From Haladaptatus salinisoli (GTDB lineage: Archaea > Halobacteriota > Halobacteria > Halobacteriales > Haladaptataceae): 64,000 nt of DNA. How positions within the stretch are numbered: the stretch's first letter is position 1; the number at the start of each line of letters is the position of its first letter. The DNA lies in the NCBI RefSeq assembly GCF_020614375.1, contig NZ_CP085327.1, positions 2,654,823 to 2,718,822 of the forward strand, in the 5' to 3' direction. The translations under genes were made by a program, and so were the position numbers. Positions 57,376 to 62,365 of the stretch are shown piece after piece. The notes below the pieces were generated by a model. The model had not been told where the DNA came from and searched no databases. It saw nothing but the letters and a program-made list of their open reading frames with translations.

Positions 57376-57681
57376 CTACGTTCGAAAGTCGAAGTTCGGC
57401 GCGTCCTCCGGCCGAAGCGGAACCTGCGGGTCGAGTTCCTGTCCGCGGTCGAACTTCACGAAGTTGAGGTAGTACAACTCGCCGCAGCCATCGCCGTCGG
57501 TCTCGGCGGCCCCGCAGACGATTTCGACGCCGTCGGCCGCTTCGAACTCGTCGTAGGCGTTGGCGTACTCCCATCCGTCCAGCGGGTCGGCGGTCACCGA
57601 CTTGTCGGCGAGACGGGCGTCGCGCTCCAACGTTGCGATAGCGCCGCAGTGAGGGCAGTGGTAGCGGACGGGAACGGTCAT
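57376..57681 (-). CDS. Zinc-finger hypothetical protein
   Basis: A 101-residue protein beginning MTVPVRYHCPHCGAIATLER, a CPHC knuckle near the N-terminus. A second cysteine pair sits near residues 56-66 (IVCGAAETDGDGCGELYYLN). A zinc ribbon is likely. The ATG at 57679-57681 is taken because the upstream in-frame extension is shadow-like. It converges with the lipoprotein gene, with 16 bases between stops. Confidence 0.7.
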   Translation of the reverse strand: MTVPVRYHCPHCGAIATLERDARLADKSVTADPLDGWEYANAYDEFEAADGVEIVCGAAETDGDGCGELYYLNFVKFDRGQELDPQVPLRPEDAPNFDFRT

Positions 57682-57799
57682 GGACGAACGTTGGTGCTCC
57701 GCGGACGTAAACCGCTCGTCGGGTCCCGTCCGCGGGTCCGCCGTCGACGCTCGGGGGTCGGCGTTCACGCCCCGTAACGACCGCCGGACGGAGCTATCG

Positions 57800-60700
57800 T
57801 CACCGCGTTCCGAAGTTCGGGATACCGTTCCGGTCGGCGTCGCCGCCGTCCGCTCCGAGGTGACGGTTCCGTTCGATAACGCGCACCCACGGGTGCTCGG
57901 CGATCCGCCGCATCTCGGCGACGGCGGCGGTGTCGTTCGCGGCGGCCGCGATGTCGTCGGCGAGCGCCAGCGAGCGTTCCTCGATTCGACCCGTGACGGA
58001 GCGTTCGGCCGAATCGGACGGATTCACGCGGTTCGCGAACCAGGCGTCGTAGTCGATACCGGCGTCGGCCAGCCGCTCCGTCAGCAGCGACACCAGTCGC
58101 GTCTCCAGTTTTCGTTCGCCGTCCAAGTCGCGGAGATAGAGTTCGTAGCACGCGGCGGCCGCGACGCTGTCGAGGACGTCGCGTCTCTCCGTCGCGTTCG
58201 CGCGGGTGGCGTCGTTCGCACGGACCCGCGTGATGGAGAGGAGATGGTAAAGGGTCTCCAGCGCGGCGGTTTCCGCGTCCGATATCGAGTTCGGCAGTAC
58301 GAGACTTCGAAGGAAGTGTTCGTCGAGGTGCATGTCGCGGATCGCCCGGTTGTAGACGAGGACGTACGTGAACCAGTTCACGATGGGCGAGTTGAGCAGT
58401 AGCGCCATCACGGCGTTCGACGGCGCGTCGTCGTCGTTCACGACGATGTTCGTGACGGTCTCGAAGGTGAACGAATCGGAGGGGTCGTACGCGGCGGCGA
58501 TTTTGATGTGGTCGTACGGATTCCGAACGTGCGCGATCAGGTTTTGGGCGACCACCTTCGGCCGTGCCATCCGCGTTCGAGCGCTCGCCGTCACGTTGCT
58601 CTCGTCCACGCGATCGGAGGCCTGCTTCGTGAAGTACCGCTGTACCTCCTTCCCTCGAAGCGCGATCGGTTCGGTCGGGTCGTCCGTCGCGTATCGACGC
58701 CCGATTCCGCGGCCGACGTCGATGTCGAAGTCGCCGAACCGTGGCAACGCCGATTCGCACAGCTCCTCCGCGACGTCGCGCTCGGCCGGCGACACGTTCA
58801 CCGGAATCGTGCCGAGGCGGTCGGCGAACGGCTTTTTCGCGTCCGCCACGTCGTCCGGGTACGTTTCGCCTTCCGGGAGCGCACCGCACTCGTAGCTGTC
58901 CGCGCCGACCGCGTCGTGCGACAGGTGAATCGTCGCTTGCTCGTGCCGAACGTTTCGAAACGCCGTCCCCAAATCGAGCGCCCGAGCGAGCTTCGGTCGG
59001 CAGAACGCGCGGTAGTCCCGCCACGTCGAACTGTACGTCCCCGCCTTCGGGACGACGAAACTCAACTCTCCGTCGGTGAGCTCCCAGCCGCGCTCGGTGA
59101 ACATCTTCGCCACCTCGCGGTCGCCCTTGATGAGGTCGTAGGCGTCCTCCAGAATTCGTTTCTGAGCGCCGCGGAGGGCGCTTCCGTGCGGCGGATTGCC
59201 GATCACGACGTCGAAGTAGACGCCCTCGCTCGGCGCGTACGATTCCGGAAACTCGAACGACCAGTGGAACGGTTCGAGCGTCTCGATATCGCTCTTCAGG
59301 AGCGGACGTTCGAGGCTGACGGTTCCACGGTCCGCCATCAGTTCGAACACCGCTTCGAGGGCGGACGGACTCGCCTCGCGGGCGTCCTCGTGGTACGCGG
59401 TCGTTTTCCAGTTCCGCTGTTCGCGGAAGCCGCGCTCGGATACGAAGTCGCGTTCCTCGTCCCCCATGGCGCCGTCGAAATCGAGGTTGAGCTTCACGCG
59501 CCCCTCCACTTCGTCCGCGATTTCGAGGTACTCGTCGAAGCTCGCGACGTCCTGCTCGACGCGAACGTCGCGGTTTTCCGCGTACGCGCCGGTGAGCTTC
59601 TCGTTCAGCAGCGCTCGTTCTTCGAGCAGGCGTCGGCGGACTTCCTCGGCCGCGGCACCGTGCGTTCGCCGGTACTCGGCGACGTCGCTCCGGTACCGCT
59701 CGACCGCTTCGGCGTACTCGATTCGCTCGCCGTCGATCCAGTCGAACTCCTCGGACTCGAGGAGCGAGCGCACGTTCCCGCCCGCCGCGCCGATGAGGCT
59801 GTTCCCCTGACGGACGTTGAAATCGACGTTCGGAAGCGGTTCGATCGTCGGATTCTCACCGGTCGGGTCGACGGTCGTCGCGCTGACGAGCCACAGCCAC
59901 AGTCGGAGCCCGCAGATTTCGGTCGCGCCGTCGAGCAGGTCGACGCCGTGGAGCGCGTTTTCGACGATGCTCCGCCTGATTCGATACTCGTCCGGCGTCG
60001 CGTCCCGGCTGCACTTGATTCGCCAGTCCTCCAGAACGTCACCGACCGACCGGAGGAACGCACCGCTCCCCACGCTGGGGTCGAGCACGGTCAGGTCGGC
60101 CAGCACGCCGTCCAGCCGTTCGAGCGTGACGCCTTCCGGATTCTCCGCCTCCGGATCCAACGCTCGCTCGAAGTACTCCGCCGCCCCGGGAAACGTCTCC
60201 CCGTCGATTCCGTGCTCGCGCACCAGGAGGTTCGTGACGCGCGCCCAGAGCGCCTCCCTCGCGTTCTCCGTGGCGACGTAGTCGGGCGTGTAGTACGCCC
60301 CGACCCTCCTGTTCCCCCGCAGCAGTTGCTCGCCGTCGTCCGTGATGTCGAGTTCGTCCAACTCGTCGAGCGTCATCCGCTCTGCGTCCGAGAGTTCGCT
60401 GATCGTGATGACGAACTTCTCGTACATGTGACCCAGGACCGCCGGAGAGAGCTTGTTCGCGGAGCTTCGACCGCCGGTCGCAACGACCGCACTCCCCTCG
60501 TCTCCCGCGTCCGGGTAGTCGTCGACGAGCCAGTCGTAACCGTTGAGTTCGTCGACCAAGCGACGCCAGTCGAAGCCGGTCGCGTCCAAATCGCGCTCGG
60601 AGACGGTCCCGTCTGTCGTCGGTATCCGTCGTTCGCGGAACAACCCGCCGTTCAGGTACGGAACGAAGACGGAGACGGAGTCAGTGACGGGGTACTCGTT

Positions 60701-61384
60701 CACATCCTCGCTGTTGAGATACTCGAAGAACACGTCGTTCAGAAAATCGCCGAACTCGGTGGACTCCTCCAGTCGGAGGAACGTCTCCTCGGCATCCAAC
60801 TCCGTCCGTCGGTTCGCGTCGTCTATCGCGTGGATGACGTTCTTCTCGACGAGAAAGTAACTGAAGACGAGGCGGTCGATGGTCCGTTGCGCCGCCAGCA
60901 GTTTCTCCCGGTCGGACACTTCGTCGCCGGTCGGGGCGTCGTACGCGCGCGCCAAGTCGAGGCGGACGTCCCAGAGACGGCGGTAGAATCGGTCGACGAC
61001 CGCCCGGATGTCGAACAGGTCGTCGAGTCCGGCGTCGACGGTTTGGAGTTTCGACCGGTCGTGCGATATCGCGTCGTCCGACCGGGCGAGCGACCGGTCG
61101 AAAACGAACGACCTGTTCTCGCCGTGCGTTCGATAGACGGCGACGCGCGCGTCGTCCGCGTTCCAGAACCAGTAGTACTCGAAGTTCCGAGTGCGCCGCA
61201 GCTCTTTCACCACGTCCGAATGCGTCTCCGGGTCGACGTCCTCGAAGTAGGCGAGACGACTTCGGGGGTCGACGGCGAACGGAATCGATTCGCCGTCGAC
61301 CGCGGTCGAGTCGGAGCCTTCCCGCGAGAAGTATCCCTTCTCCTCGAGGAAAGCGCGGTCGTAAGCCGCCGCGGCGTCGGTCAT
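57800..61384 (-). CDS. Eco57I-type adenine methyltransferase / Type IIG-like R-M protein
   Basis: A 1194-residue protein with the layout of fused Type IIG restriction-methylation enzymes. An N-terminal region (1-350) contains SVFVPYLNGGLFRERR. Motif X is RVGAYYTPDYV (360-370), motif I VLDPSVGSGAFL (433-444), and motif IV VIGNPPHG (728-734). A C-terminal region resembles target-recognition domains. Motif IV normally reads NPPY/F; here His replaces the aromatic residue. No clear PD-ExK nuclease motif is seen, so it may be a methyltransferase only, a phage-defence protein, or degenerate. No partner gene is adjacent. Confidence 0.83.
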   Translation of the reverse strand: MTDAAAAYDRAFLEEKGYFSREGSDSTAVDGESIPFAVDPRSRLAYFEDVDPETHSDVVKELRRTRNFEYYWFWNADDARVAVYRTHGENRSFVFDRSLARSDDAISHDRSKLQTVDAGLDDLFDIRAVVDRFYRRLWDVRLDLARAYDAPTGDEVSDREKLLAAQRTIDRLVFSYFLVEKNVIHAIDDANRRTELDAEETFLRLEESTEFGDFLNDVFFEYLNSEDVNEYPVTDSVSVFVPYLNGGLFRERRIPTTDGTVSERDLDATGFDWRRLVDELNGYDWLVDDYPDAGDEGSAVVATGGRSSANKLSPAVLGHMYEKFVITISELSDAERMTLDELDELDITDDGEQLLRGNRRVGAYYTPDYVATENAREALWARVTNLLVREHGIDGETFPGAAEYFERALDPEAENPEGVTLERLDGVLADLTVLDPSVGSGAFLRSVGDVLEDWRIKCSRDATPDEYRIRRSIVENALHGVDLLDGATEICGLRLWLWLVSATTVDPTGENPTIEPLPNVDFNVRQGNSLIGAAGGNVRSLLESEEFDWIDGERIEYAEAVERYRSDVAEYRRTHGAAAEEVRRRLLEERALLNEKLTGAYAENRDVRVEQDVASFDEYLEIADEVEGRVKLNLDFDGAMGDEERDFVSERGFREQRNWKTTAYHEDAREASPSALEAVFELMADRGTVSLERPLLKSDIETLEPFHWSFEFPESYAPSEGVYFDVVIGNPPHGSALRGAQKRILEDAYDLIKGDREVAKMFTERGWELTDGELSFVVPKAGTYSSTWRDYRAFCRPKLARALDLGTAFRNVRHEQATIHLSHDAVGADSYECGALPEGETYPDDVADAKKPFADRLGTIPVNVSPAERDVAEELCESALPRFGDFDIDVGRGIGRRYATDDPTEPIALRGKEVQRYFTKQASDRVDESNVTASARTRMARPKVVAQNLIAHVRNPYDHIKIAAAYDPSDSFTFETVTNIVVNDDDAPSNAVMALLLNSPIVNWFTYVLVYNRAIRDMHLDEHFLRSLVLPNSISDAETAALETLYHLLSITRVRANDATRANATERRDVLDSVAAAACYELYLRDLDGERKLETRLVSLLTERLADAGIDYDAWFANRVNPSDSAERSVTGRIEERSLALADDIAAAANDTAAVAEMRRIAEHPWVRVIERNRHLGADGGDADRNGIPNFGTR

Positions 61385-61513
61385 TGTCCATCCAGGTTAC
61401 GGGTGCCGATTCAAAATAACTACCCCCCGAGGGGTGTCGGGCGGACCCCGCCCGCGAACCGTCCGAATCGGAAACCCAGAACAATCTTGTATCCCGACGA
61501 ACTCCGTTAGCGC

Positions 61514-62365
61514 ATGATAGACGAGACTGTCGAGGAGATACAGGAGATGCAGACGCACAGCTCCTCGACCGTCGCGGTCAAGGCCGCGCAGGCGCTGGAA
61601 GACCTCCTGACCCGCGAGTTCGAGACGGTCGAGGAGTTCGAGCGCGCGCTCGAACACAACAGCAACGCCCTCCGGCGGGCGAACCCCTCCCACGCCTCGC
61701 TCGTCACGACCCAGCGAGCCATCGTCACGATGGTCACCGACGCGGAAAACGAGTCCGTCGAAGCGGCCAAACGGAACACGGAGGAGGCCATCGACAGCGT
61801 CGTCGAACAGGTCGTGACCGCCAAGCGCCGCGCCGCCGAGAACGCCGCCCCGCTGTTCGAGGACGGCCTGACGTTCATGACCCACGACTACTCGTCGACC
61901 GTGCTGGAGGCGGTCGAACAGGCCGTCGCGGAGGGCGCGTACCTCGACGCGTACGTGTTGGAGGCCCGCCCGCGCTACCTCGGGCGCAAAACCGCCCGCG
62001 TGCTCGGCGAAATCGACCAGGTGGACGTGACCCTCGTCGTGGACAGCGCCTCGGGACACTACCTGCCGGAGTGCGACCGCGTGTTCACCGGCATGGACTG
62101 CATCGTGGACGAGACGCTCTACAACCGCGTCGGGACGTTCCCCCTCGTCGCCACCGCGAACGAGGTGGGCGTTCCCGTGACGACCATCGCTTCCAGCGCG
62201 AAGATCGTCGGCGAAGCGTTCCGCTTCGAGAACGATTTCCGCTCGGGGAGCGAGGTGATTCGAGAGCCGGCGGAGGGCTTCTCGGTGGCGAATCCTGCCT
62301 ACGACGCGACGCCGACCCGTCTCCTCGATTCCGTCGTGACGGACGAGGGGACGTGGGAGTACTGA
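61514..62365 (+). CDS. eIF2B-alpha/ribose-1,5-bisphosphate isomerase-family protein
   Basis: A 283-residue member of the family that includes archaeal aIF2B, methylthioribose-1-phosphate isomerase and ribose-1,5-bisphosphate isomerase. The Rossmann-like half has VTLVVDSASGHYL and GMDCIVDETLYNRVGTFPLV, where Asp195 matches the isomerase Asp. The catalytic Cys region, THC in the Thermococcus enzyme, is THDYSST with Asp125. It may therefore be the regulatory/eIF2B-like paralogue or an altered isomerase. A divergent promoter region of 129 bases separates it from the R-M-like gene. Confidence 0.82.
   Translation: MIDETVEEIQEMQTHSSSTVAVKAAQALEDLLTREFETVEEFERALEHNSNALRRANPSHASLVTTQRAIVTMVTDAENESVEAAKRNTEEAIDSVVEQVVTAKRRAAENAAPLFEDGLTFMTHDYSSTVLEAVEQAVAEGAYLDAYVLEARPRYLGRKTARVLGEIDQVDVTLVVDSASGHYLPECDRVFTGMDCIVDETLYNRVGTFPLVATANEVGVPVTTIASSAKIVGEAFRFENDFRSGSEVIREPAEGFSVANPAYDATPTRLLDSVVTDEGTWEY

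What the first reader, a model, noticed from the sequence alone, without database searches (positions are those of the whole stretch)
57800..61384. Solitary Type IIG-like protein with NPPH instead of NPPY/F
Motifs X and I are intact but motif IV has His in the place of the base-stacking aromatic residue, and no obvious PD-ExK nuclease motif is present. It has no adjacent R-M or BREX/DISARM partner. It may be a phage-defence effector with altered chemistry, a regulatory methyltransferase, or an inactive relative. This is the best candidate for an undescribed system in the window.
Basis: partly seen in the sequence, partly recalled or inferred. Interest (0 to 1): 0.65.

Follow-up and report, generated by a model that had tools for sequence, protein, structure and literature searches.

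The report
Orphan DNA adenine methyltransferase with NPPH
This haloarchaeal gene is a stand-alone DNA-methylating enzyme descended from a two-gene restriction-like system whose nuclease-helicase partner is missing here, and its unusual histidine is a conserved, probably working variant of the standard active site rather than a sign of a new defence system.

Summary
The 1194-aa ORF at 57800-61384(-) in a Haladaptatus chromosome is an Eco57I/gamma-class N6-adenine methyltransferase. Motifs X and I are intact, motif IV is NPPH, and no nuclease motif was found. The His is conserved in the 80% orthologue at the same locus in H. halobius and in a 50% homologue on an H. halobius plasmid. It also occurs in two other archaeal relatives; one carries an apparently intact PD-EFK nuclease domain, which argues that NPPH enzymes methylate.

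The plasmid homologue and the sister clade (Natronococcus, methanogens) are two-gene units: this methyltransferase plus a ~1085-aa PLD-nuclease/SNF2-helicase fusion resembling fused CglI/NgoAVII R-N proteins. The window genome lacks that partner. Related solitary copies, and one locus where the helicase has a 2.55-kb internal deletion beside an intact methyltransferase, show that partner loss recurs. The window gene is a clean one-gene insert: seven of nine Haladaptatus genomes lack it there. It is under purifying selection (dN/dS 0.29; 0.16 around NPPH).

Best reading: an orphan m6A DNA methyltransferase left from an R-M-like pair, active with His in motif IV (activity inferred). It is neither an ordinary Type IIG enzyme nor an undescribed one-gene defence system.

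The parts
57800..61384 (-). Orphan Eco57I-family (gamma-class) N6-adenine DNA methyltransferase, 1194 aa
61055..61384 (-). N-terminal domain (residues 1-110), conserved in the helicase-partnered family; position of a PD-(D/E)XK domain in Type IIG relatives but without D...ExK (degenerate reading is an inference)
   Evidence: alignment A1; AF2 confidence too low here to confirm the fold
60284..60301 (-). Motif X, GAYYTP (residues 362-367)
60053..60082 (-). Motif I, DPSVGSGAFL (residues 435-444), AdoMet binding
59186..59215 (-). Motif IV, FDVVIGNPPH (residues 724-733); His733 codon at 59186-59188
59765..61384 (-). N-terminal half (1-540), nearest to methyltransferases partnered with a PLD-SNF2 helicase (38-41% identity; 53% to the plasmid homologue)
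57803..59317 (-). C-terminal half (690-1194: motif IV onward plus target-recognition region), nearest outside Haladaptatus to Type IIG-like proteins incl. L193 (NPPH, PD-EFK); mosaic relative to the N half
57737..61464 (.). Approximate extent of the one-gene insert absent from seven of nine Haladaptatus genomes at the same site

Best explanation
The gene encodes an orphan N6-adenine DNA methyltransferase. Its ancestors were the M component of a two-gene, ATP-dependent R-M-like unit. In that unit the methyltransferase marks a site, probably non-palindromic, and a separate PLD-nuclease/SNF2-helicase protein cleaves unmarked invading DNA. In this Haladaptatus lineage only the methyltransferase gene sits on the chromosome, in the spacer between a small zinc-ribbon-like gene and an IF-2B-family gene. 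The partner is absent from the genome, so the protein alone should methylate host DNA but not restrict phage. His733 takes the place of the Tyr/Trp/Phe that stacks on the flipped adenine and is expected to stack or hydrogen-bond in its stead. Shown: gene, motifs, conservation, partner in relatives, partner absence here, empty sites, purifying selection. Inferred: DNA adenine methylation, activity with His, how the pair works, the host role.
For: Family: Eco57I Pfam; profile hits to BrxX/PglX, M.TaqI and MmeI, with the motif IV region aligned on that of TaqI; the model's best fold matches are BrxX, the orphan enzyme CamA and M.TaqI. Partner: an overlapping or adjacent PLD-SNF2 gene in the 50% homologue, in Natronococcus, three further haloarchaea and the M. 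okinawensis plasmid pMETOK01, and in a non-haloarchaeal archaeon; HxK, GSANF, GxGKT and DEAH present in most; Pfam RE_NgoFVII PLD plus helicase domains. Partner absent in the own genome. Recurrent orphaning: L069 and four more genomes without a close partner; a 2.55-kb internal helicase deletion beside an intact methyltransferase in L073. Functional constraint: dN/dS 0.29 overall, 0.16 at residues 701-830, 0.56 in the C-terminal tail. His compatibility: conserved at 50% identity; present in L193, which keeps an apparently intact PD-EFK nuclease domain.
Against: No methylation data exist. No NPPH DNA methyltransferase with proven activity was found in the papers searched. An enzyme under selection could act on RNA or act without methylating. 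The intact nuclease in L193 is a sequence reading only.
Confidence: 0.66

Rival explanations
1. A catalytically dead methyltransferase kept as a DNA-binding or regulatory protein: His abolishes base stacking and transfer.
For: The residue is Y or W in 79 of 84 homologues; the partner is lost, so the pressure to methylate may be relaxed; C-terminal tail dN/dS is 0.56.
Against: His is also in a homologue that still has its PLD-helicase (L147) and in L193 with a PD-EFK domain, where loss of methylation should be harmful; motifs X and I and all other invariant positions are intact; the NPPH region is the most constrained part of the protein.
Confidence: 0.17
2. An ordinary Type IIG enzyme that both cuts and methylates.
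For: PADLOC Type IIG models are the best family matches; overall size and domain order fit.
Against: No nuclease motif; the N-terminal domain lacks D...ExK in ten relatives, and relatives carry the nuclease (PLD) on a separate protein.
Confidence: 0.06
3. A one-gene phage-defence effector with altered chemistry (for example methylating another base or a modified base in phage DNA).
For: Patchy presence as a clean single-gene insert; His conserved in a small clade.
Against: Relatives are M components of a two-gene unit; recurrent orphaning explains solitude; nothing indicates toxicity or an effector domain.
Confidence: 0.08

Closest known systems
CglI / NgoAVII restriction-modification systems (PMC4267653)
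   Same: A methyltransferase with a PLD-family nuclease and an SF2 ATPase; over 95 homologues with nuclease and ATPase fused are reported there; the partner here matches Pfam RE_NgoFVII PLD plus a helicase.
   Different: CglI/NgoAVII methyltransferases are C5-cytosine enzymes; here an Eco57I-type adenine enzyme. The window has only the methyltransferase.
Type IIG (Eco57I, MmeI-like) enzymes
   Same: Methyltransferase core order (X, I, long insert, IV, TaqI-like C-terminal region), Pfam Eco57I.
   Different: No PD-(D/E)XK nuclease in the polypeptide; motif IV is NPPH.
BREX PglX/BrxX
   Same: Methyltransferase core profile and fold similarity.
   Different: NCBIfam PglX score 30 bits against a cut-off of 500; none of the neighbours identified is a BREX gene.
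DISARM class 1 DrmMI/DrmD
   Same: SNF2 helicase beside an adenine methyltransferase in the relatives; PADLOC DrmMI and DrmD partial hits.
   Different: No drmA, drmB or drmC listed beside the annotated partnered loci; hits are partial; the helicase carries a PLD domain.
Orphan methyltransferases of haloarchaea (PMC6471742, PMC10609329) and CamA
   Same: Solitary, patchily distributed methyltransferase without a nuclease; CamA is a close fold match.
   Different: Large (1194 aa), present in two of nine Haladaptatus genomes at this site; target unknown; NPPH. The widespread orphan groups described there methylate CTAG or GATC; membership in those groups was not tested.

Membership tests
Gamma-class N6-adenine DNA methyltransferase (Eco57I family) | Motifs X, I, IV in order with AdoMet-binding DPxxGSGxF and Pfam Eco57I above cut-off | tested here: met
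Gamma-class N6-adenine DNA methyltransferase (Eco57I family) | Y, F or W after NPP in motif IV (usual, but replaced by His in five relatives, so treated as a variant position rather than a bar to membership) | tested here: not met
   His733
Gamma-class N6-adenine DNA methyltransferase (Eco57I family) | m6A activity on DNA | not testable with these tools
   needs long-read methylation calls or biochemistry
Type IIG restriction enzyme | Nuclease domain in the same polypeptide | tested here: not met
   no nuclease family, no D...ExK in ten-sequence alignment
PLD-SNF2 helicase plus Eco57I methyltransferase pair | N-terminal half grouping with partnered methyltransferases | tested here: met
   tree of residues 1-540, support 0.99-1.0
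PLD-SNF2 helicase plus Eco57I methyltransferase pair | Adjacent PLD-SNF2 gene | tested here: not met
   absent from window and genome
BREX PglX | PglX equivalog score and neighbouring brxC/pglZ | tested here: not met
   30.2 bits against 500; identified neighbours are IF-2B, GFO/IDH, RtcB and primase
DISARM | drmA, drmB, drmC | tested here: not met
   annotated partnered loci list none; identified window neighbours are housekeeping genes
Orphan methyltransferase | No cognate nuclease gene in the genome | tested here: inconclusive
   the family's known partner is absent; an unrelated cognate nuclease cannot be excluded

The most novel reading that the evidence does not exclude
The His-for-aromatic swap marks a small archaeal branch of adenine methyltransferases with a changed flipping or catalytic mode (for example pH- or salt-tuned stacking, or a different target such as N4-cytosine or a modified base), moved between systems by exchange of the C-terminal half.
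Probability: 0.12. Interest if true: 0.6.

Novelty: new variant of a known kind. Interest (0 to 1): 0.36.

Why it matters
It removes a candidate 'undescribed defence system' and replaces it with a testable account: the methyltransferase of a PLD-helicase R-M-like pair outliving its nuclease, with one locus (L073) caught in mid-loss. The NPPH variant gives a natural test of how strictly motif IV needs Tyr, Phe or Trp. The archaeal methyltransferase plus PLD-SNF2 pair itself, found on a Methanothermococcus plasmid and several haloarchaeal replicons, did not turn up as described in the papers searched and may be the more useful target.

Tried and rejected
Sequence search of PDB with the single protein gave nothing; a profile was needed. 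AlphaFold2 with 16 permitted rows gave a usable methyltransferase core but pLDDT of about 30 for residues 1-126, so the N-domain fold is not settled by structure. Looking for a remnant of the helicase near the gene: none (only a generic helicase elsewhere in the window at 21.5 kb). The ~203-aa convergent gene found beside sister loci was considered as a cognate nuclease; it is not in the window and was not found in this genome (weak as a negative because no positive control was included). The 56 viral NPPH hits are nearly all a small (~205-280 aa) protein, the one tested being a weak MTS-domain match; they are not relatives of this protein. Chance, frameshift or sequencing error for NPPH was rejected by conservation. 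Recent foreign origin by base composition: GC 0.652 and GC3 0.85 resemble the neighbours, so no signal.

Full report
What is there. The ORF at 57800-61384 on the minus strand is real, 1194 aa, uninterrupted. It lies in a Haladaptatus chromosome (window = G000:C1:2654823-2718822; genus from the 96-80% identical H. halobius locus), between a small ORF (57376-57768, probable true start near 57681) and an IF-2B-family gene (61514-62365). Pfam Eco57I (43.6 bits, cut-off 25.3) and weak TaqI_C identify a gamma-class adenine methyltransferase. NCBIfam PglX matches only locally (30 bits against 500). PADLOC gives Type IIG and DrmMI partial hits.

Motifs. In an alignment of 16 relatives the invariant columns G362, T366, P367 (X), D435-F443 (I), G480, D482, L517, N528 and F724-P732 are all kept by this protein; only the residue after NPP departs. 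A profile from ten relatives aligns the NPP region with that of M.TaqI and of BrxX. The AlphaFold2 model (pLDDT 80-90 in much of the core, about 30 at residues 1-126) matches BrxX, CamA and M.TaqI by fold. That the aromatic residue of NPPY stacks on the flipped adenine is established knowledge of M.TaqI, recalled and not tested here.

Is NPPH chance? No. The His codon is conserved in the 80% orthologue in H. halobius at the same locus and in a 50% homologue on its 599-kb plasmid. In 392 haloarchaeal genomes a strict NPPH pattern finds only this gene. Among 84 distinct long homologues the residue is Y 52, W 27, H 5. The other two H cases (L193, L194) come from another archaeal family. L193 reads FVDLISKDERGLKVLVEFK near its N-terminus, an apparently intact PD-(D/E)XK site, so it looks like a true Type IIG enzyme with NPPH; such an enzyme should need working methylation (inference).

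Mosaic. Residues 1-540 group with methyltransferases that have a PLD-SNF2 partner (38-41% identity; support 0.99-1.0). Residues 700-830 group with L193 (0.90), and 831-1080 fall with L150, L151, L193, L195 and L076 rather than with the sister clade. So the NPPH half and the partnered half have different nearest relatives; support for the C half is moderate.

The missing partner. The plasmid homologue is preceded by a 1083-1084-aa gene, and the Natronococcus occultus, L071, L072 and L074 copies by one of 1086 aa. In the haloarchaeal sister loci the genes abut or overlap by a few bases; in the plasmid copy they are 49 bp apart. pMETOK01 of Methanothermococcus okinawensis carries both genes with a small gene between, and a further archaeon (L191) has the pair. 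The partner has a PLD domain (RE_NgoFVII, PLDc_2) and SNF2/Helicase_C domains, with HxK, GSANF/L, GxGKT and DEAH motifs in three of four examined (L191 reads HVK and GLGKS). This resembles the fused PLD-ATPase homologues of CglI/NgoAVII described in PMC4267653, but with an adenine rather than a C5-cytosine methyltransferase. The window genome (99.9% complete) has no such gene, only generic helicases, and no remnant lies near the gene.

Orphaning recurs. L069, L075, L077, L078 and L079 are solitary and their genomes lack a close partner; the single hit, in the L077 genome, covers only the helicase C-terminal domain. In L073 the helicase carries a 2554-bp internal deletion and frameshift while its methyltransferase stays open (1205 aa) and is about 95% identical to that of L074 over the stretch compared. 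This is a direct intermediate of the proposed history.

Insertion site and constraint. In seven of nine Haladaptatus genomes the same spacer is empty and short; the window and H. halobius carry a clean ~3.7-kb insert with only this gene. Whether this is gain in the shared ancestor or loss elsewhere is not decided. dN/dS between the two orthologues is 0.29 (neighbours 0.03-0.16), lowest at residues 701-830 (0.16) and highest in the C-terminal tail (0.56). The gene is therefore kept functional, most of all around NPPH.

Conclusion. Best reading: an orphan m6A DNA methyltransferase derived from a PLD-helicase R-M-like pair, active with His in motif IV. Activity, target and host role are inferred, not shown. 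Literature: haloarchaeal orphan methyltransferases and patchy R-M genes are well documented (PMC6471742, PMC10609329); no paper on an NPPH DNA methyltransferase was found.

Noticed in passing
L147:6697-13522; L149:2682-9552; L148:5124-12637; L071:5406-12279: A two-gene archaeal unit, Eco57I-type methyltransferase plus PLD-SNF2 helicase, on plasmids and chromosomes of haloarchaea and methanogens; the Haladaptatus copy sits next to an integrase gene. Possibly an under-described R-M-like system.
   Followed up: partly
L074:11992-12600(-), L149:9569-10180(-), L069:6236-6841(+), L194:5090-5539(+): A conserved ~155-205-aa protein of no known Pfam family beside sister methyltransferases (convergent in the haloarchaeal loci), also beside the NPPH relative L194; weak PADLOC Type II REase hit. 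Possible small cognate nuclease or accessory.
   Followed up: partly
L073:7240-7940: Helicase gene with a 2.55-kb internal deletion next to an intact methyltransferase: partner loss caught in progress.
   Followed up: yes
L091-L146 (IMG/VR): A family of small (~205-280 aa) viral proteins, apparently methyltransferases (the one tested has a weak MTS-domain match), with NPPH as the usual motif (EWCAGxGxxG ... DLIVGNPPH); substrate unknown.
   Followed up: partly
L025:6523-18996: A Halorussus plasmid locus with a PLD-like/helicase gene between two different Eco57I-type methyltransferases (NPPW and NPPY).
   Followed up: no
L193:1032-4799: A Type IIG-like protein with an apparently intact PD-EFK site and NPPH; an EVE-like small gene follows.
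   Followed up: partly
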